This document shows positions 36,287 through 43,641 of a DNA stretch of 64,000 nt, piece after piece (within the stretch, counting starts at the first letter, position 1; every line of letters starts with the position of its first letter). The stretch spans positions 930,001 through 994,000 of the forward strand of contig NZ_CP141587.1 of assembly GCF_035593985.1 (NCBI RefSeq), in the 5' to 3' direction. Origin of the DNA: Sphingomonas sp. LY29 (GTDB lineage Bacteria > Pseudomonadota > Alphaproteobacteria > Sphingomonadales > Sphingomonadaceae). The position numbers and the translations under genes are program-made. The notes under the pieces were generated by a model that made no database searches, had not been told where the DNA came from, and was given only the letters and a program-made list of their open reading frames with translations.

Positions 36287-36362
36287 GCCGGTTTAGCTCA
36301 GTTGGTAGAGCAGCGGTTTTGTAAACCGAAGGTCGCGGGTTCGACTCCTGCAACCGGCACCA
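36287..36362 (+). tRNA. tRNA-Thr (anticodon TGT)
   Basis: A 76-base cloverleaf: acceptor GCCGGTT...AACCGGC, D arm GCTC...GAGC, anticodon loop TTTGTAA with anticodon TGT (reads ACA), T arm GCGGG-TTCGACT-CCTGC, and encoded ACCA at 36359-36362. The outermost anticodon-stem pair is a mismatch (G-A), but the rest is regular. It is convergent with the end of the six-gene minus-strand operon. Confidence 0.93.
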
Positions 36363-36426: not shown

Positions 36427-37764
36427 TCAGTCCGGTTCGGCGAGGTCGCTCGTATATTGCTGCGCCTTATGCCCGTCGGGCAAGGTGTCGACTGCGATTG
36501 CGACAGTGCCAAGCAAATGTTCGAGCGCGGCGCGTGCCGGACCGGCATGGCGCATCGACCCGCGTGACAGCGACAGCAGGATGGTGCCGTCGACGCGCTG
36601 GTGAAGCGCATATTGTGCGATTGGCAGTGGCCGGAGGGCGTGGGTCACCTCGATGTTGTTGCGCCATGCGCCGGCCGCGTCTCGGAAGCGCACCGGTCGC
36701 CGCCCGACCAGGTCGATGATCACCCGCTCCCCCCTAACGGTTGCGAGCGCGCCCTGGTCGCCGGTGCGATAGCGCAGCAGCGGCAGGCAGAAATTGAAGC
36801 CGCCGGTGACGGTCAGCTCGCCGCGCTCTCCGTCGGGAAGCGCGCGTCCTTGCTCGTCAATGACCTCGACCCACAGCCGATCCTGCAGCAGGACATGCGC
36901 GCCCAGCGAAGGGTCGAACACCGCGATCGGCCCGACCTCGTTCATCGAATAAAGGTCGAGCACGGGGCAGCCGAACCTTTCTTCCAGCGCCGACCGGAGA
37001 CCGTCGCTCAGCATCATCGAGACCGACAGCAGTGCCCTGGGACGGCTGGTGACGCCGAGGTCCAGCAGCACTTCGAACGACAGGGGATCGCCAGCGATAA
37101 ACTCGGGCGCGAGTGCATCGATGTAGGCGGCTCGGTCGTCGGGGGAATGCCAATCGTCGGGGTGGAGGTTGATCTTGGCGAGGCCGGACTCGCCCATTTG
37201 CGGAGTCACCGACGTATAGGTGAAACAGGTTTGCTGATGTCCTATCAGCACCACGCCAACCTGCCCCGCGCCATGCTTCGGCACGATCCCGAACAGTGCC
37301 AGCGCCCGCTTGTGGAAGCTGAGGTAGCGGCCCGCGACCTGCGGGTGCGAGGGGACCAGCAGGCTGTGGCCCGTGGTGCCGGTCGTCTGGAAATTGATCA
37401 GGCGCGAAAGATCGACCGGGTCGGGGACGAAGCGGGCAATGTCCTGGGCAAGATCGGCGCGCGATACGGGTTGGACATCCGCCAAGGTCGCCGGCACCGG
37501 GCCGAGCGCGCGATAATGAGGGATGTCGTCAAAGCATTGCCGAATGAAGTCCGGCAGCCATGGTGGCTGGCTCTGTCCGGTCACTGCGGGACCGAGTTCC
37601 GCCTCGAACAAGGCAAGCGCGGACAGATCATCACTGGTCAGGCGGTTGCCGCTTTGATTGCGGTAACGCGGCGCTTTCTGATGTTCGCGCATGAAGGTCA
37701 GGATTGCCCGACCCTGCGCGGTCAAGGTCGGATAGCGGTCGTCGTCGTCGGCATCTCGGGTCAT
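36427..37764 (-). CDS. PaaK/CapK-like adenylate-forming enzyme (operon gene 6)
   Basis: A 445-residue protein. TTGTTG (residues 127-132, in NFQTTGTTGHSLLVPS) is the phosphate-binding motif of AMP-forming ligases. LDLYSMNEVGPIAVFDPS resembles the A5-type region, and LPLLRYRTGDQGAL is the Y-R-T-G-D motif of this superfamily. The spacing resembles phenylacetate-CoA ligase and CapK-like proteins. These activate a carboxylic acid as an acyl-AMP. The C-terminus is short. Start: ATG 37764 overlaps the preceding stop (ATGA), and an ATG 12 bases earlier (37776) is less likely. Substrate unknown. Confidence 0.78.
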   Translation of the reverse strand: MTRDADDDDRYPTLTAQGRAILTFMREHQKAPRYRNQSGNRLTSDDLSALALFEAELGPAVTGQSQPPWLPDFIRQCFDDIPHYRALGPVPATLADVQPVSRADLAQDIARFVPDPVDLSRLINFQTTGTTGHSLLVPSHPQVAGRYLSFHKRALALFGIVPKHGAGQVGVVLIGHQQTCFTYTSVTPQMGESGLAKINLHPDDWHSPDDRAAYIDALAPEFIAGDPLSFEVLLDLGVTSRPRALLSVSMMLSDGLRSALEERFGCPVLDLYSMNEVGPIAVFDPSLGAHVLLQDRLWVEVIDEQGRALPDGERGELTVTGGFNFCLPLLRYRTGDQGALATVRGERVIIDLVGRRPVRFRDAAGAWRNNIEVTHALRPLPIAQYALHQRVDGTILLSLSRGSMRHAGPARAALEHLLGTVAIAVDTLPDGHKAQQYTSDLAEPD

Positions 37765-38345
37765 TCGCGCGTCCATTTATCGGCCGACTCATGTGCCGCC
37801 TTGCGCGCCAGCGCGTCGCGAACCTCGCGGGCGCGCTGCTCGGCGAGACGGCTGGCGTCGAGCAGCCGCGCTCGTTCCAGCGCGCTGACCGCGGACAGCC
37901 GGTCGCGGGCCTGTTCGGCGCTCTCGCCTGCCGGTCGCAGCCCCAGCCGCGCCAGCATGGTGCGCGCCAGTTCCTCGCGCCGGTCGGCTTGCTCGACATA
38001 AGCGTGCGCGCTCGCCTGCCCGGCCAGCTCGCCGAGCGACGTCAACAGGAAGTCCGACAGGCGGGACGGGGCGGGCGGCCGGTCGCGCAGCCAGTCGTCG
38101 GCCAGGAGCCAGGCGGCGATTGAACCGAGCATCAATCGGTTGCGCTGGTCGCCTGGCTGACCGGCCGCGAAGGCGCGCCGGATGGTACCATCGACGCCAA
38201 GGCCCAGGTCGTGGATGACGTCGCCCAGAAGGGCCGCGACCGCCACGCCGTCGCGCTGGGCAAGCGCGGGCTCGCCAAGGAAATCGGCGGGGGTTTCGGC
38301 AATCCTGCGCAGGATCGCTTCGAGGGGCGGGCCAAGATCGTTCAT
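37761..38345 (-). CDS. Unknown helical protein, 194 residues (operon gene 5)
   Basis: From the ATG at 38345, four bases after the radical SAM stop. The sequence is predicted helical throughout: MNDLGPPLEAILRRIAETPA, SIAAWLLADDWLRDRPPAP, and a long charged C-terminal segment (RARLLDASRLAEQRAREVRD) that could be a coiled coil. No family is recognised and no signal peptide is seen. Its place between a radical SAM enzyme and an adenylating enzyme suggests an accessory or substrate-carrier role. That is only inference. Confidence 0.7.
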   Translation of the reverse strand: MNDLGPPLEAILRRIAETPADFLGEPALAQRDGVAVAALLGDVIHDLGLGVDGTIRRAFAAGQPGDQRNRLMLGSIAAWLLADDWLRDRPPAPSRLSDFLLTSLGELAGQASAHAYVEQADRREELARTMLARLGLRPAGESAEQARDRLSAVSALERARLLDASRLAEQRAREVRDALARKAAHESADKWTRE

Positions 38346-38349
38346 TCGT

Positions 38350-39318
38350 TCACGCCGCAAACTTCCCGAAAAACTGGGTCGATGGACAGTCGTCGCACAC
38401 TGCCGCCCTATGCCGTTGCCGGGACTGGCGGAAGCGCGCCGCAAGGCTGTCCACGTCGGCCACGGTCCGCAGCTGGTCGATGGCCACCCCATGGTCATCG
38501 AGCGTGAAGCTGCACGGACCGATCCGGCCAAGCTCATCGACGAATAGGAATTGCTCGCCGGGGCCGCAGTCGTGCACCGCGAGCGGGTGACCGCGCGTGC
38601 TGGCGTCGATCCGCGCGAGATAGTCCGGGCTGGCGCACAGCCGAACACCGCGCGCGCCAAGCTCGTCCTTTAGCGCGGGAATCGTGTCGGAAAGCCGTCG
38701 GCTATCGTCTGGACGCAGCGCCTGTGCGGGAAAGAAGTCGGGCCTGTCCCGGCCGCCAAGCTGGTTGAAGGTGATGTCGTCGATTCCCCAGTCGGCAAGC
38801 GTTCGGCAAAGGTCGGCAAAAGACGGCAGCGTCGCCTGCATCAGCACGATATTGGCGCGAAGTTTCAGCCGAGCGCCCTCCCGGGCCCGCTCAGAGGCAA
38901 GCGCCACAATCGCAGATCGAACCCGGTCGTAAGCCCCGGGCGCACCCCGCAGTCCGTCATGGACAGACGCAGGCCCGTCGAGGCTGAAGGTCACTTCCGC
39001 GAAATGATCGAGCAGGTGGCGACGCACCTCCAGATTGTCCATTCGCGTGCCATTACTGGTCATGCTGAGGGCGACGGCCGCATGACGCGCGAGGCGGGCA
39101 GAGAGCCCGAACAACGGTCGCCAGAGCATCGGCTCGCCGCCGAGCCAACTGACGAGCAGGGGCTCGCCCCGCATCCGGGCGGCATCGGCGACAAGGCCGA
39201 TCACCCGCTCGACCTCGTCAGGATCGGCGGCATGGCGGGCAATCGGCAGCCGCCGGTCGTAGGCGCAAAAACCGCACGAGAAATTGCAGTGGGTGGTGAT
39301 GCGCCAAAGCAGGATCAT
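38350..39318 (-). CDS. Radical SAM enzyme with C-terminal auxiliary-cluster cysteines (operon gene 4)
   Basis: A 322-residue protein. C11, C15 and C18 (HCNFSCGFCAY) form the CX3CX2C motif that binds the SAM-reducing iron-sulfur cluster. GGEP at 60-63 is the usual SAM-binding element, and TSNGT and FSLDGP follow in the barrel. C-terminal C251, C269, C308 and C311 (HDCGPGEQF, GPCSF, CDDCP) are arranged like a SPASM/twitch auxiliary cluster. Such enzymes commonly modify peptide or protein side chains. The start overlaps the VWA gene's stop (ATGA). Confidence 0.88.
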   Translation of the reverse strand: MILLWRITTHCNFSCGFCAYDRRLPIARHAADPDEVERVIGLVADAARMRGEPLLVSWLGGEPMLWRPLFGLSARLARHAAVALSMTSNGTRMDNLEVRRHLLDHFAEVTFSLDGPASVHDGLRGAPGAYDRVRSAIVALASERAREGARLKLRANIVLMQATLPSFADLCRTLADWGIDDITFNQLGGRDRPDFFPAQALRPDDSRRLSDTIPALKDELGARGVRLCASPDYLARIDASTRGHPLAVHDCGPGEQFLFVDELGRIGPCSFTLDDHGVAIDQLRTVADVDSLAARFRQSRQRHRAAVCDDCPSTQFFGKFAA

Positions 39319-41063
39319 GCGGCAACCCTGTCTGAAGCCTGCTGATAATGGCGCTTGGCGAAGCGGCGCGCGAAGTCGAGCAAATCTTCGAACGTGAGGA
39401 CGCGCTCGATTTCCCAACCTTGCTCCCGCGCGCGGGTCATCCACGCGAGATCGTCCCGAACCATATTGAGCGCCATCATCCCGCCGCCGCGCGCCGCCTT
39501 CAACGCCATGGCCGACACGTCCCAGCCGCTGTTCCCGCGTTCGTCGGCGTCGAACATGGTCGAAATGCCGTCGTCGCTGATCTGGACGATGCGAACCGCC
39601 CGTGCGTCTTCTTTTCGGTTGGCGTAAGTGTCGCGCAGCTTGTGGATGGGAAAGGCGGTCGCACCGCCGAAATAGCCCGTCAGAATGGCCAGGATCGCAT
39701 CCTCCTGGTTCGAAAAGCCGTCGGTCGACATCATCTGCTGCTTGCCGCTCCACAGCGTGACTTGCACCTTGGCGCCGGTACGCAGGGCCGACAGCGCGAT
39801 GATGGCACCGGCGAGCGTGAGGAAGGAGATGCGTCGGCGGGGGTCGGGCATCGACCCGCTGCTGTCGACGTAGAGGTCGAGATCCACCGGTTGGGTGCGG
39901 ACTTCCTCGCCCGCGACCTCACCGTACGTCCGGCGCACCGTGGTCAGTCCGGGGATAGGATGCGGGGATTGGGCAAGCGTCGACAGCCAGTCGATCTCGT
40001 CGAACGAATCGCCAAATTCCCACGGCTCGAGCCCCTCCATCTGAGGCTCGGTCGCGCCCGGCTGTCGAAGCGTGGGGAACGGGACGAGGTGGGGAATGGC
40101 CTGTTCGCGATAGTAGAGCGCCGCGATCTGCTCGTCCGTCAGGTCGATCCCACCTGCGCGGAGGATCTCGCCATATTCCCACGTCTCGCGCCGCTGGCCG
40201 GCGCCGCTGCCCTTCGATGGCTCGATCGGCTTATTGGTATCCGCACCTTCCGTGTCCTGGCCGGTGATGCGCGGATCCTGCGACGGGTGCAGGCTCGGCC
40301 CGCCCTCCCCCTCCTCCATGTCGCTAAGGCCCACCGCGTCGCCGCCAAGCGCCGCGTCGCGCGTGTCGAACAGGGCATCGGCCGGGCCGAGCGCATTCTG
40401 GTCTTCAACCAGGTACGGCAGCACCAGCGCGGTAAAGCGGCTCGCCCCGACCAGCCAGTCGCGGGCATAGACGCGGACGATCCGCGCGCCGAGCCACGCA
40501 TCGCCGAGCAGGCGCGCGTCCTCCGTCTCCCCGCCGATCGATCCGCGGTCGAGCGACCAGAGCGATTCGTAAATGCCCATGTAAAAACGCCACAGCCGGC
40601 TCGACGACGCGCCGCTGACGGCGGCCAGCGCGCGGTAGATGTCGCCGATCCGCAGCCCTTCTTGCCGTTGCAGCCGGTCGTTGATCAGCAGGTCGGTGAA
40701 TAGGTTGGCGACCATCGGGGCATGCGCTTCGAGGGTCGGGAGTTCCTTGCGGATGCGGGCGATCAGCCGGAGGTGATCGGTCGGCGTCGCGGGGGCGAGG
40801 ACATGGTGGCCAATTTCATGCGCAAGCACTTCGACACCATAGTCTTCGAGCGCGAAGCGGCGTACCTGCGGCAGATCGATGACCACGCTTTTGTCGGCAA
40901 GCCGGATCATCGCGAAGCTGCCCTGCAATCCTTCGCGCGCTGCGTCGGGCGAGCTGACGCAAAGAAGGGGATCGTGGAGCCGCGTATACTTGCTCCAATG
41001 GGCAAGCGCGGCGGGCCAGTCGGCGCGCCAGCGCGCGACCAACTCCTCGTCGGTCATGCTCAT
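39315..41063 (-). CDS. Metallopeptidase-like plus VWA-domain protein (operon gene 3)
   Basis: A 582-residue protein. HEIGHH at 82-87 is a zinc-peptidase type motif, and D124 in NLFTDLLIND could be the third metal ligand, as in DUF2201-type N-terminal domains. Residues ~230-300 form a polar linker (EEGEGGPSLHPSQDP). The C-terminal VWA domain has the MIDAS residues D400, S402 and S404 in LYVDSSGSM, T469 in GGATAF, and D497/D498 in ISDDGIS. VWA proteins of this kind pair with MoxR ATPases, as here. The stop overlaps the radical SAM start. Confidence 0.85.
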   Translation of the reverse strand: MSMTDEELVARWRADWPAALAHWSKYTRLHDPLLCVSSPDAAREGLQGSFAMIRLADKSVVIDLPQVRRFALEDYGVEVLAHEIGHHVLAPATPTDHLRLIARIRKELPTLEAHAPMVANLFTDLLINDRLQRQEGLRIGDIYRALAAVSGASSSRLWRFYMGIYESLWSLDRGSIGGETEDARLLGDAWLGARIVRVYARDWLVGASRFTALVLPYLVEDQNALGPADALFDTRDAALGGDAVGLSDMEEGEGGPSLHPSQDPRITGQDTEGADTNKPIEPSKGSGAGQRRETWEYGEILRAGGIDLTDEQIAALYYREQAIPHLVPFPTLRQPGATEPQMEGLEPWEFGDSFDEIDWLSTLAQSPHPIPGLTTVRRTYGEVAGEEVRTQPVDLDLYVDSSGSMPDPRRRISFLTLAGAIIALSALRTGAKVQVTLWSGKQQMMSTDGFSNQEDAILAILTGYFGGATAFPIHKLRDTYANRKEDARAVRIVQISDDGISTMFDADERGNSGWDVSAMALKAARGGGMMALNMVRDDLAWMTRAREQGWEIERVLTFEDLLDFARRFAKRHYQQASDRVAA

Positions 41064-42049
41064 GGCCGCCGCCGCGAATAGACCCTGAGCTGGTAGGACC
41101 AGGGCGAGGCGAGCGCGATGCTGTCGTCAGTGAGCGCCATGGCCAGCCCGTTCGCGGGCAAGTCGCACTCCAGCGGGTGACCGTCGACCTCGACGCCCCG
41201 GTCAAGCGTGACCGGCGCGGGGTTGGCGGCCTTGGCGCCGGTGAGCGCTTCGGCGAAAACCGGACGCAGGGTCGCTCCATAGGTATCGGCGTCGAGCAGA
41301 AAGTGCTGATCACCCGAGCGTGCGAAGAATGCGTTGCCGAACGCGAACAGCACCGGAGGCACGGGAAAGCGACCGCCGAGCCCGGTGAAGCTGCCGACGC
41401 GATGGCCTTCGCTTGGCGTACTGCCATCGGGACGCCACCAGCGCGACGATCGGAACGAGGCGACGATCTCGTCCCACGAGGCGTCGGGTTGCGCGCTCAC
41501 CGCCTGGAGCGCCAGCGCGGGGTTGATTGCTACCCCGAGCGCGGCATCGCGAAGATGCGCCGCTCCCGCGCGCCAACCGGCAAGGATGACCAGCGCGCGA
41601 AGATCGGGCACCGAACGCACCTCGCCGCCAAGCCGCGCCAGAATATCCATCCACTCGTCGATCCGCACTCCCGGCACGGCGGCCAGGTTGATCGCGGCGT
41701 TGGTCAGCGCGCCGAGCGTATCGCGCGGATTGATGGCGACGAGAGGGGCGAGTGCCGGGGCGACCTCGCGCCACAGCTTCAGCACCATCGCCGAGCGCGG
41801 GGTGTCGCCTGCACGCCCATGCTCGACCAGCGACAGCGCCATGTCGAACACTGTGTCGATAAACGCCGCGCCGCCGTCGGGTCGCTCGCGCAGGACATGG
41901 CCAAGCAACGGATCGACCGGATCGCGCAGGAAGGCGGACAGCGCGGCGGTGTCGAGGTTCGGCTGCCGCGAGCGAGCCATCGCGACGCGCGCGTTAAGGC
42001 CGGCCCGCCGGTCCGCCAGCAGATCGGCGAGCGGCGCGCTGACCGGCAT
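41060..42049 (-). CDS. Unknown protein, 329 residues (operon gene 2)
   Basis: From the ATG at 42049, which overlaps the AAA gene's stop (TGATG). A GTG at 42067 is an alternative. The first two thirds are helical with repeat-like hydrophobic heptads (DTVFDMALSLVEHGRAGDT, TLGALTNAAINLAAVPGVRI), perhaps HEAT-like. The last ~70 residues look beta-rich (VEVDGHPLECDLPANGLAMA). No family is recognised. The stop overlaps the VWA gene's start by four bases, so it is probably a subunit or adaptor of the MoxR-VWA pair. Confidence 0.75.
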   Translation of the reverse strand: MPVSAPLADLLADRRAGLNARVAMARSRQPNLDTAALSAFLRDPVDPLLGHVLRERPDGGAAFIDTVFDMALSLVEHGRAGDTPRSAMVLKLWREVAPALAPLVAINPRDTLGALTNAAINLAAVPGVRIDEWMDILARLGGEVRSVPDLRALVILAGWRAGAAHLRDAALGVAINPALALQAVSAQPDASWDEIVASFRSSRWWRPDGSTPSEGHRVGSFTGLGGRFPVPPVLFAFGNAFFARSGDQHFLLDADTYGATLRPVFAEALTGAKAANPAPVTLDRGVEVDGHPLECDLPANGLAMALTDDSIALASPWSYQLRVYSRRRP

Positions 42050-43641
42050 CAGCGGGTTTCGAGCCACGCGAGATAGTTCGTGTAGCGCTGGTGCAGATAT
42101 TTCAGCTTGAGCAAGTCGTCGTAGAGCGGGCCGTAGAGCTTGCGCCCCTTGCCGAGCTCCGTCACCAGCCGTTCGATGCGGGTCAGCCGGCTTCGCACGG
42201 TCCGCGCTTCCAGCCCGTGAAGCCCTTGATCGAACTCGGTCGACAGCGCCCCGACCGGATCGTCGCGATCGAGATCGAGCCGGTCGTATTCGGCGTTCGA
42301 GGAATCGAACAAGGCGCGCAGCCAGCTTAGTCGGTCGGCGCGATAGGCGGCATTCTCGGGTCGGGCGAAGAAAGGCGCGTCGACGTCGGGATGAAGCTTG
42401 TCGTTGAGGACGAACGGCAGCACCTGGCGCACGTCTTCGAGGTCGACCTCGGCTGAGCCGCGGAACCAGCTCATCGCCTTGGCGAAGGTGAGCAGCGTCA
42501 TCAGGTTGCGAACCGACAGGCCATTCATCGTCTGGCAGCCCAAGTCCTTGAGCCGGTCGCGCCCTTGGTCCGCAGCAACCGCCGCCGCCCAGTCGACCCG
42601 CGACAGACGCGCGGTGTCCTTGGTCATATATTCGAACTGCTCGCCGGCCGATTCGAACAGCTCGAACTGGCTGCTGAAGAATTCGATGCGACGGCGGACG
42701 TGCTCGGGAACGGGAATGGCGCGAATGGCGCGGGTCATCCGGTCGAGCTCTTCGGTCGTGAAAACGATCTGCGACGGGACGACATCCTCGGGCCGGACAT
42801 TGGCCTCGATCCGCATCAGCAGGTCGTTGAGGAAGCGCGGATTGAACGACAGCGCCTGGACGATAACGTCGATGCGGTCGCGCAGCGCCTCGATCACCTG
42901 ATAGGTGCCGCCGCCCGCATCGTCATTGGCGGTCAGGTACCATGCGGCATCGGGACATTCGTAGATGTGGCCCAGCACCTCGGCATAATTGTCGCCCATC
43001 ACCGTCAGCAACGCGCTCTGCGTGCGGGTCGGGATGCGATTATATTCGTCGATGATCCTGACCCGCATCGACAGCCAAGGGCGCCAAGCGATGCGGATTT
43101 CTTCCATCGACTGCGCGCCGACGAGATCGGCGGGGAGTGGATTGCCGAGCAGGTCGGCGATTGTCATCTGCGGATGGCCATGCTGCATCGAGCGACGAAC
43201 CTCGCGCGGGCTGTAGCCGGCAAGGACGCCCATCAAGATCGCGCTGGCGGTCTTGCCGCGCCCGGGGCCGCCGACGAACAGGCACTTGCTGCGCGTGGCG
43301 AAGGTCAGCAGCGGCAGGAGGACGTAAGACGAATAGCTCTGGGCCGAGGGGAGCACCAGTTCGGACCCGCTGTCACCGATCGGAAAGGCGGCGGGCGGAC
43401 CGTCATTATATTCAATGTCGTAATGCGGGCTGATGATCGCGTGATTGACGATCCAGAAATAGGCCTGGCGCAGCTTCTCGTCGAGCGGCAGCGCCCCGTC
43501 CGCCTCGGCGTCGGACACCGCCAGCGGCCCTTCGAACAGTTCGGCGACATCATACGCCGTCGATTGGCGCGCGGCAGCTGGATTGGTCGGCGACTTGGAA
43601 ATCGAAGAGAAGATGTTCAGCAGATCCGACCCAAACGCCAT
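42049..43641 (-). CDS. MoxR-type AAA+ ATPase (operon gene 1)
   Basis: A 530-residue ATPase from the ATG at 43641, which follows GAGGG with a seven-base gap. Walker A is GGPGRGKT (124-131), Walker B RIIDEYN (195-201, in RVRIIDEYNRIP), sensor 1 YLTAND (N239), with EALRDRIDV holding the arginine finger region. The helix-2 insert (MQHGHPQMTIADLLGNPLP) is typical of MoxR proteins. A ~100-residue N-terminal and a long helical C-terminal extension make it larger than MoxR (about 330). MoxR ATPases remodel protein complexes with a VWA partner. Confidence 0.9.
   Translation of the reverse strand: MAFGSDLLNIFSSISKSPTNPAAARQSTAYDVAELFEGPLAVSDAEADGALPLDEKLRQAYFWIVNHAIISPHYDIEYNDGPPAAFPIGDSGSELVLPSAQSYSSYVLLPLLTFATRSKCLFVGGPGRGKTASAILMGVLAGYSPREVRRSMQHGHPQMTIADLLGNPLPADLVGAQSMEEIRIAWRPWLSMRVRIIDEYNRIPTRTQSALLTVMGDNYAEVLGHIYECPDAAWYLTANDDAGGGTYQVIEALRDRIDVIVQALSFNPRFLNDLLMRIEANVRPEDVVPSQIVFTTEELDRMTRAIRAIPVPEHVRRRIEFFSSQFELFESAGEQFEYMTKDTARLSRVDWAAAVAADQGRDRLKDLGCQTMNGLSVRNLMTLLTFAKAMSWFRGSAEVDLEDVRQVLPFVLNDKLHPDVDAPFFARPENAAYRADRLSWLRALFDSSNAEYDRLDLDRDDPVGALSTEFDQGLHGLEARTVRSRLTRIERLVTELGKGRKLYGPLYDDLLKLKYLHQRYTNYLAWLETR

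What the first reader, a model, noticed from the sequence alone, without database searches (positions are those of the whole stretch)
36427..43641. Six-gene operon joining a MoxR ATPase, a VWA/metallopeptidase protein, a radical SAM enzyme and an adenylating enzyme
Seen: six minus-strand genes over 7.2 kb, joined by TGATG or ATGA overlaps or a 4-base gap. The order is MoxR AAA+, unknown 329-aa protein, HEIGHH plus MIDAS VWA protein, radical SAM with auxiliary cysteines, unknown 194-aa protein, PaaK/CapK-like ligase. Known: MoxR-VWA pairs remodel or activate enzymes, radical SAM-SPASM enzymes modify peptides, and AMP-ligases activate acids. Inference: the ATPase-VWA pair may present or proof a protein that is modified by the radical SAM enzyme and acylated or ligated by the adenylating enzyme. 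I know of no described system with this set.
Basis: partly seen in the sequence, partly recalled or inferred. Interest (0 to 1): 0.85.

Follow-up and report, generated by a model that had tools for sequence, protein, structure and literature searches.

The report
MoxR-VWA cassette tied to NAD salvage
A block of six bacterial genes turns out to be one copy of a rarely carried but very widespread gene cassette, in which a protein-remodelling motor, a carboxyl-activating enzyme and usually the genes for recycling vitamin B3 into NAD travel together, and I found no description of its job.

Summary
The six-gene operon is real, with the stated order and overlaps. The usual core is MoxR, gene 2, metallopeptidase-VWA, gene 5 and ligase. 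The radical SAM gene is in 9 of 24. A partner invisible from the window recurs: the nicotinamide riboside (NR) importer PnuC and NR kinase/NMN adenylyltransferase NadR adjoin the cassette in 16 of 21 assessable copies (NadR alone in one) and share the core's divergence (r 0.88-0.96, 18 loci). The window copy lacks them; a Sphingomonadaceae relative has them. Gene 5 ends in a fixed tail: of the best 120 homologues, 116 end Arg-Glu and all in an acid. Carriers are few (2 of 397 Sphingomonadaceae genomes); the window copy adjoins tRNA-Thr at a site without it in six congeners.

Best explanation: MoxR-VWA is a dedicated activase, docking on gene 5's acidic tail, for the gene 5-ligase pair, which works in NR/NAD-linked chemistry. 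Architecture and linkage are shown; mechanism and product are inferred. Rivals: conflict system, protein tagging, nicotinamide-derived metal cofactor, peptide maturation.

The parts
42049..43641 (-). MoxR-type AAA+ ATPase, 530 aa; core gene 1
   Evidence: Pfam AAA_3 31.6 bits and AAA_lid_2 25.1 bits, both over cut-off; Walker A GGPGRGKT and IIDEYN read from the translation; median identity 64% among 18 cassette copies
41060..42049 (-). Gene 2, 329 aa: helical N-terminal part and beta-rich C-terminal part (about 210-329); core gene 2
39315..41063 (-). Metallopeptidase-VWA protein, 582 aa: HEIGHH with downstream N-x3-D-x2-IND, C-terminal VWA with MIDAS; core gene 3
   Evidence: H82, E83, H86, D124, N128, D129, D400, S402, S404, D497 invariant in 26; weak M48 (5 members) and VWA_2 (4 members) matches among 24 relatives
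38350..39318 (-). Radical SAM enzyme with a four-cysteine C-terminal region; accessory gene
   Evidence: Radical_SAM 44.4 bits; cysteines invariant in 6 of 6; present in 9 of 24 cassettes
37761..38345 (-). Gene 5, 194 aa helical protein with a long C-terminal helix ending in Arg-Glu; core gene 4
   Evidence: of the best 120 homologues 116 end RE, 2 RD, 2 HE; model pLDDT 89.5, helix 155-193
36427..37776 (-). PaaK/CapK-like adenylate-forming ligase, 449 aa; core gene 5
   Evidence: AMP-binding 33.6 bits; best NCBIfam DVU_1553 family AMP-dependent CoA ligase 71.1 bits against a cut-off of 300; YRTGD and R359 invariant in 15
36287..36362 (+). tRNA-Thr(TGT) next to the cassette; probable insertion point
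   Evidence: ARAGORN and Rfam; no cassette DNA matched after this tRNA in 6 of 6 same-genus stretches of 12.5 kb examined

Best explanation
This is a horizontally spread MoxR-VWA activase cassette dedicated to a gene 5-ligase enzyme pair that works in chemistry linked to nicotinamide riboside/NAD. Shown: a five-gene core (MoxR, gene 2, metallopeptidase-VWA, gene 5, PaaK-like ligase) is inherited together across phyla, usually with pnuC-nadR and in some lineages with the radical SAM gene. Inferred: MoxR hexamers drive the metallopeptidase-VWA co-chaperone; its MIDAS metal site captures the near-invariant acidic C-terminal tail (usually aromatic-x-Arg-Glu) at the end of gene 5's long helix; gene 2 is a scaffold or adaptor; ATP turnover remodels the gene 5-ligase complex, or trims it through the zinc peptidase site, to switch the ligase on or release it. 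The ligase then activates a carboxylate as an acyl-adenylate, which a radical SAM step modifies further in some lineages. PnuC-NadR supply or recover NR, NMN and NAD that the reaction uses or depletes. The ligase's acid, the final product and the direction of the NAD link are unknown.
For: Gene order moxR-gene2-vwa in all 24 cassettes; gene 5 in 22 of 23 assessable, ligase in 20 of 22. Pairwise divergences of the eight genes over 18 loci (14 with pnuC, 15 with nadR, 6 with the radical SAM gene) correlate at r 0.88-0.98. pnuC and/or nadR adjacent in 16 of 21 assessable, in two arrangements (before moxR in L016-L019 and L021, after the ligase elsewhere). PnuC present somewhere in 20 of 21 searched genomes with the orthologous cassette, against 19 of 99 over the cut-off in Sphingomonadaceae. 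Cassette NadR keeps its HxGH and Walker A motifs in 9 of 9 aligned (motifs named from recall). In L012's genome the radical SAM orthologue lies divergent to an unlinked pnuC-nadR pair. In L005 nrtR precedes moxR, beside NAD synthetase, NAPRTase and NadM-type genes. Gene 5 and ligase are duplicated together in L009, which points to a functional pair. Gene 5's C-terminus is fixed, and the positional counterparts in two diverged myxobacteria end GWRE. MIDAS metal sites take a ligand from the target protein (passages of PMC13036017). That MoxR-VWA operons often carry their client's genes is recalled.
Against: The window copy has no linked pnuC-nadR (an unlinked pair lies at 477 kb in its genome), and L011-L014 have none linked either. 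Gene 5 and ligase are missing in L014, and the ligase in L015. The two diverged myxobacterial genomes have no PnuC. L011's gene 5 ends in QV rather than an acid. nrtR adjoins the cassette in one locus only. No complex was modelled, so MIDAS-tail docking is untested. PnuC-NadR could serve cell NAD homeostasis without chemical coupling to the ligase. The divergence correlation has no control gene from the same genomes, and cannot separate functional coupling from joint inheritance.
Confidence: 0.38

Rival explanations
1. It is a biological-conflict (anti-phage or anti-competitor) system of the MoxR-vWA kind: the motor senses or thresholds an attack, the ligase, radical SAM and peptidase act as effectors, and PnuC-NadR restore NAD after NAD-depleting warfare.
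For: Sporadic presence (2 of 397 Sphingomonadaceae; 4 of 198 genomes of G228's family) and an insertion site beside a tRNA that lacks the cassette in 6 congeners. In L037 an Avs3a/Avs3b pair lies directly next to the cassette. Other strong PADLOC matches among flanking proteins (mad6, C3a189, PDC-S48, HEC-05, MkoA and kinase models, E 1e-38 or better for the best of each) were not traced to loci. L013's cassette carries a nucleoside 2-deoxyribosyltransferase-like gene (28.0 bits, just under the Pfam cut-off) with a homologue in L012. The radical SAM protein matches two viperin models (E 1e-11, 1e-10). Aravind and colleagues describe MoxR-vWA ternary systems as conflict systems (PMC7159879, sections 8 and 22 read).
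Against: PADLOC finds nothing in MoxR, gene 2, gene 5 or ligase and only an E 0.04 match in the VWA protein; 0 of 26 VWA relatives match. The viperin similarity is below NCBI's cut-off (41.2 of 180 bits) and no better than to several other radical SAM families. No hypervariable effector seen: MoxR is 57-75% identical to the window copy in the six loci outside its family that were compared. No VWA match in plasmids, phages or viral contigs.
Confidence: 0.26
2. Gene 5 is a protein modifier: the ligase adenylates its C-terminal glutamate and attaches it to a target, and the metallopeptidase-VWA/MoxR complex unfolds or deconjugates the product, in the manner of Pup or ubiquitin-like systems but with an unrelated activating enzyme.
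For: Fixed -RE terminus in 116 of 120 and near-fixed length (104 of 120 are 194 or 195 aa); gene 5 and ligase duplicated together in L009; a AAA+ motor and a peptidase in the same cassette.
Against: No adenylate-forming enzyme of this fold is known to me to activate a protein C-terminus; L011's gene 5 ends QV; gene 5 is a 194-residue helical protein with no PDB relative found.
Confidence: 0.1
3. The cassette makes a nicotinamide-nucleotide-derived metal cofactor, by analogy with the nickel-pincer nucleotide (recalled): NR/NMN is the precursor, the ligase activates a carboxylate, the radical SAM enzyme functionalises it, and the MoxR-VWA motor inserts metal.
For: PnuC-NadR linkage; MoxR-VWA pairs such as NorQD insert metal (abstract and passages of PMC13036017); radical SAM gene next to pnuC-nadR in L012's genome.
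Against: Lar-type genes were not searched for; among neighbours clustered I recognised no recurrent client metalloenzyme; the radical SAM gene is absent from most cassettes.
Confidence: 0.07
4. The radical SAM enzyme matures a peptide (RiPP-like) presented by the MoxR-VWA pair.
For: Its best NCBIfam match is a peptide maturase (PapB 59.6 bits, cut-off 340; mycofactocin maturase 52.2, cut-off 265), but heme-pathway NirJ scores alike (57.4 bits).
Against: Radical SAM gene in only 9 of 24 cassettes; no gap for a precursor gene inside the operon; gene 5's tail looks the same where the enzyme is present or absent.
Confidence: 0.05

Closest known systems
MoxR-vWA activases/chaperones (NorQ-NorD, RavA-ViaA, CoxD-CoxE; CbbQ-CbbO from recall)
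   Same: MoxR AAA+ partner plus VWA protein with an intact MIDAS, next to a probable client
   Different: VWA is fused to an N-terminal metallopeptidase; partners are an adenylate-forming ligase, gene 5, gene 2 and NR-salvage genes; I recognised no client metalloenzyme beside it
MoxR-vWA ternary conflict systems of Kaur et al. 2020 (FtsH and beta-propeller types; PMC7159879)
   Same: MoxR-vWA couple with a third component; the FtsH type can carry a radical SAM gene; gene 2 ends in a sheet that weakly resembles propeller blades
   Different: No FtsH, no propeller after the VWA domain, no variable effector seen, and the words acyl-CoA and AMP-ligase do not occur in that paper
Jumbo-phage MoxR with metallopeptidase-vWA pair (PMC7824862)
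   Same: vWA co-chaperone fused to an N-terminal metallopeptidase, beside MoxR (passage)
   Different: No match of the window VWA protein in the phage collection at E<=0.01; proposed there for virion assembly
PaaK/CapK-like adenylate-forming enzymes
   Same: AMP-binding fold with conserved motifs; phenylacetate-CoA ligases 2y4o and 2y27 are the nearest solved sequences
   Different: Only 71.1 bits to the best NCBIfam model (cut-off 300), so outside named families; paired with gene 5 in each of the 20 cassettes that have it
PnuC-NadR nicotinamide riboside salvage
   Same: Importer plus bifunctional NR kinase/NMN adenylyltransferase with intact motifs in cassette copies
   Different: Here co-inherited with a MoxR-VWA machine; missing from the window copy itself

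Membership tests
MoxR-VWA two-component AAA+ machine | MoxR AAA+ ATPase with Walker motifs beside a MIDAS-bearing VWA protein | tested here: met
   AAA_3 over cut-off; MIDAS residues D400, S402, S404, D497 invariant in 26; same operon in all 24 cassettes
MoxR-VWA two-component AAA+ machine | Physical MoxR-VWA complex with ATP-driven remodelling of a client | not testable with these tools
   no complex prediction or assay available
Kaur et al. [quoted passage not shown]
   the VWA region (MIDAS D400 to D497) is followed by only about 85 residues to the C-terminus; a propeller-like sheet is in gene 2 instead, at weak Z
Kaur et al. beta-propeller ternary system | MoxR P-loop variant GXXXTAKS (reported as frequent) | tested here: not met
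   window P-loop reads GGPGRGKT
Kaur et al. FtsH ternary system | FtsH AAA+ protease component | tested here: not met
   no FtsH-type match among the six operon proteins
Known anti-phage defence systems (PADLOC-DB 2.0.0) | Match to a defence protein model | tested here: inconclusive
   radical SAM protein matches viperin models at E 1e-11 and 1e-10 but is under NCBI's viperin cut-off (41.2 of 180 bits); no match in MoxR, gene 2, gene 5, ligase; E 0.04 in the VWA protein; 0 of 26 VWA relatives
Radical SAM peptide (RiPP) maturation system | Radical SAM enzyme with CxxxCxxC and auxiliary-cluster cysteines | tested here: met
   invariant in 6 of 6; that the extra cysteines hold a cluster is inferred
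Radical SAM peptide (RiPP) maturation system | Precursor-peptide gene beside the enzyme | tested here: not met
   operon gaps of at most 4 bases; only four short ORFs of 31-64 aa upstream of moxR, not tested for conservation
PaaK phenylacetate-CoA ligase | Curated NCBIfam score for PaaK | tested here: not met
   38.3 bits against 646.3
Adenylate-forming (ANL) superfamily | AMP-binding domain with conserved motifs | tested here: met
   Pfam AMP-binding over cut-off; G133, G136, E280, YRTGD, R359 invariant in 15
PnuC-NadR NR salvage module | pnuC and nadR beside the cassette | tested here: inconclusive
   16 of 21 assessable copies (one with nadR alone); not in the window copy
DUF2201-type metallopeptidase-VWA proteins | Pfam match to the DUF2201 models | tested here: inconclusive
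   not among the families matched by 24 relatives; similar motif order only from recall

The most novel reading that the evidence does not exclude
A protein-tagging system of a new kind: gene 5 is a modifier whose near-invariant C-terminal glutamate is adenylated by a PaaK-like ligase (a fold not known to me to act on protein C-termini), conjugates are handled by a MoxR-driven metallopeptidase-VWA machine, and the cycle is wired to nicotinamide riboside/NAD supply.
Probability: 0.1. Interest if true: 0.93.

Novelty: new variant of a known kind. Interest (0 to 1): 0.7.

Why it matters
MoxR-VWA machines are widespread, but few clients are known (recalled). Here is a phylum-crossing cassette with a largely fixed set of partners, one obvious docking candidate (the -RE tail) and a metabolic handle (NR/NAD), so the client problem becomes directly testable. 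If the NAD link is causal, it would reveal an unsuspected process that uses or protects the NAD pool in environmental bacteria. Gene 2 and gene 5, which match no Pfam model in the window copy, would gain a function together with the rest.

Tried and rejected
Gene 2 as one of the described Pfam families: only chance-level matches in 15 homologues. Its C-terminal sheet only weakly resembles propeller blades, and its helical part was barely tested by that search. Gene 5: no PDB relative found; absence from these lists excludes nothing; one of the 120 listed homologues (P0223) carries a precomputed PF13700, not followed. A phage or plasmid origin: no VWA match in plasmids, phages or viral contigs; no gene 5 match on plasmids; MoxR gave only partial matches below 60% identity in 8 plasmid records and 1 phage record; the ligase gave 32 partial matches on plasmids, of which two were followed: an Embleya replicon and a Deinococcus CapK are not in cassettes. 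NrtR as a general regulator: its domain is in 11 of 23 genomes, but inside a fetched cassette locus only in L005. Weak VWA matches (L004, L025, L026, L030, L040-L043) lack the other genes, except that L030 has weak MoxR and VWA matches together; they were dropped from the 24. L023 and L024 are counted apart as diverged: gene 2 has no profile match there, gene 5 scores 17 bits in L023 and nothing in L024. L008, L010 and L015 were left out of the pnuC-nadR count because their contigs are short; L008 and L010 out of the ligase count; L008 out of the gene 5 count. On checking this report against the calls I raised the conflict rival from 0.24 to 0.26, because strong but untraced PADLOC matches near cassettes had been left out.
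Full report
Observation. The six minus-strand ORFs, their order and their tight junctions are as described. Pfam recognises MoxR, radical SAM and the AMP-binding ligase; genes 2, 3 and 5 of the window match no Pfam family at E<=1. In gene 3 the HEIGHH motif and MIDAS residues can be read directly and are invariant in an alignment of 26. The radical SAM protein has its CxxxCxxC and four further invariant cysteines (6 sequences).

Distribution. With the window, four genomes of one family (G286, G228, G724, G731) and one further Sphingomonadaceae genome (G1217) this gives 24 copies. Hosts of the named loci include Proteobacteria, Acidobacteria, Anaerolineae, Kibdelosporangium, Planctomycetes, Flavobacterium and Ozemobacter. 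Two myxobacterial loci (L023, L024) carry a diverged version: with the window proteins as queries MoxR scores 482 and 478 bits and VWA 119 and 118; genes 2 and 5 are counterparts mainly by position. Frequency is low. Full-length VWA matches, the window's own genome included where sampled, occur in 2 of 397 Sphingomonadaceae, 4 of 198 in G228's family, 3 of 398 in the phylum sample (a fourth match is partial) and 2 of 369 in a class sample (four further matches are partial). None of the ten other same-genus genomes listed has it, but a protein 95% identical to gene 2 is on record from Sphingomonas sp. LY160, so at least one close relative outside that sample carries at least that gene. The protein collection gave 2811 VWA relatives at E<=0.001 among the 7994 candidates scored; not all need be cassette members.

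Core and accessory genes. moxR-gene2-vwa is in all 24. Gene 5 is in 22 of 23 assessable (missing in L014). The ligase is in 20 of 22 (missing in L014 and L015). The radical SAM gene is in 9 of 24: window, L005, L006, L008, L009, G228, G724, G731 and G1217. A genome-wide search found its orthologue at E<=1e-40 in 9 of 23 genomes: eight in cassettes, and one, in L012's planctomycete genome, away from the cassette but divergent to a pnuC-nadR pair. L008's genome was not in that search.

The NAD link. Clustering of neighbours showed a recurrent pair: PnuC, the NMN_transporter family, and NadR, with cytidylyltransferase-like and kinase (AAA_28) parts. They flank the cassette in 16 of 21 assessable copies (L022 with nadR alone): L005, L006, L007, L009, L016-L022, G286, G228, G724, G731 and G1217. 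In G1217 one contig ends in the radical SAM gene and another starts with gene 5-ligase-pnuC-nadR; that they are one cassette is inference. The pair stands before moxR in L016-L019 and L021 and after the ligase in the others. Cassette NadR proteins keep GK(F/Y)xPxHxGH and a GxxSxGKT Walker A in 9 of 9 aligned. Over 18 loci their divergences track those of the core (r 0.88-0.96 with the five core genes; no control gene was run). PnuC occurs somewhere in 20 of the 21 orthologous-cassette genomes searched, not in L013's, and in neither diverged myxobacterial genome; in Sphingomonadaceae at large it is over cut-off in 19 of 99. The window's genome has an unlinked pnuC-nadR pair at 477 kb, whose NadR scores 232 bits with the cassette NadR profile against at least 359 for cassette copies, several of which built the profile. 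In L005, nrtR stands between the cassette and a divergent set of NAPRTase, NAD synthetase, NadM-type and ADP-ribosylglycohydrolase genes, but nrtR adjoins the cassette in that locus alone among 23 genomes.

Gene 5 and ligase. Of the best 120 of 892 gene 5 homologues, 116 end RE, 2 RD and 2 HE; 102 of 120 have an aromatic residue at position -4 (counted from the tabulated tetrapeptides). Outside that list, L011's copy ends QV and L012's ends YGE, and the diverged myxobacterial counterparts end GWRE. The tail is conserved also where gene 5 and ligase do not overlap (L009, L013, L016), so overlapping reading frames do not explain it. The model puts the tail at the end of a 39-residue helix (pLDDT about 61 over the last residues). 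In L009 gene 5 and ligase are duplicated together around the radical SAM gene, which suggests that they form a pair. The ligase keeps conserved ANL motifs but reaches no named NCBIfam family's cut-off; its best is DVU_1553 at 71.1 of 300 bits.

Mobility. A tRNA-Thr gene ends 64 bases before the ligase stop. In six same-genus genomes the sequence up to and including this tRNA is present and no cassette DNA is matched in the 12.5 kb stretches read; the next window gene (threonine synthase-like, label from reading the translation) follows 1.9 and 2.6 kb after the tRNA in two of the six. No integrase was sought. Together with the sporadic presence this points to horizontal gain.

Mechanism. In studied MoxR-VWA pairs the ATPase acts through the VWA partner on a client, and the MIDAS metal takes a ligand from the target protein (passages of PMC13036017; section 8 of PMC7159879). 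By that rule the near-constant neighbours, gene 5 and ligase, are the best client candidates, and the fixed acidic tail is the best docking candidate. This is inference: no complex could be modelled here. The zinc-peptidase residues are invariant, so limited proteolysis may be part of the cycle. The NR/NAD genes suggest that the ligase reaction uses, makes or depletes a nicotinamide nucleotide, or that the cassette is deployed when NAD is short.

Defence context. One locus (L037) has an Avs3a/b pair beside the cassette. A scan of 94 of 169 listed flanking proteins gave 54 PADLOC families, 25 of them shown, including strong matches that were not traced. The conflict reading therefore stays open.

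Known or new. Kaur et al. 2020 describe MoxR-vWA ternary systems, including one with FtsH and radical SAM and one with beta-propellers (outline, passages, and sections 8 and 22 read); the defining features tested here are not met. A jumbo-phage survey reports MoxR with a metallopeptidase-vWA fusion (passages of PMC7824862). No held paper combines MoxR with PnuC; only that survey holds both MoxR and NadR, its MoxR and nicotinamide riboside passages being in different sections. Searches combining MoxR with radical SAM, ligase and related terms gave no description of this set (listings; 20 of 99, 20 of 46 and 12 of 38 papers listed). Many subscription papers and all bioRxiv preprints are outside the library, so novelty is stated for these searches only.

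Verdict. The locus is a real, conserved, apparently horizontally spread cassette of unknown function: a new variant of the MoxR-VWA kind with unexpected partners.

Noticed in passing
L005:610-7308: nrtR upstream of moxR and a divergent NAD gene set (NAPRTase, NAD synthetase, NMN adenylyltransferase-Nudix, ADP-ribosylglycohydrolase) beside the cassette
   Followed up: yes
L037:14811-19842: Avs3a/Avs3b defence pair directly next to the cassette, convergent with nadR
   Followed up: partly
L009:11743-16753: gene 5-ligase pair duplicated around the radical SAM gene in an acidobacterium
   Followed up: partly
L012:7901-8923 and L013:7888-8901: extra gene between moxR and gene 2 in planctomycetes; L013's copy resembles nucleoside 2-deoxyribosyltransferase (28.0 bits, just under cut-off), and L013 has two other radical SAM genes downstream
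   Followed up: no
L023:4066-9953 and L024:7606-13502: diverged myxobacterial five-gene version; the gene 5 counterpart ends GWRE; no PnuC in either genome
   Followed up: partly
L069:7521-10240: nadR-pnuC divergent to the radical SAM orthologue, unlinked to that genome's cassette (L012)
   Followed up: yes
L014: cassette with only moxR-gene2-vwa; gene 5 and ligase absent from the next 10 kb
   Followed up: no
L030: weak MoxR and VWA matches side by side in a distant proteobacterial genome (G399), without the other genes in the 3.2 kb held
   Followed up: no
window:36287-36362: tRNA-Thr(TGT) site is variable between congeners and may be an integration hot spot
   Followed up: partly
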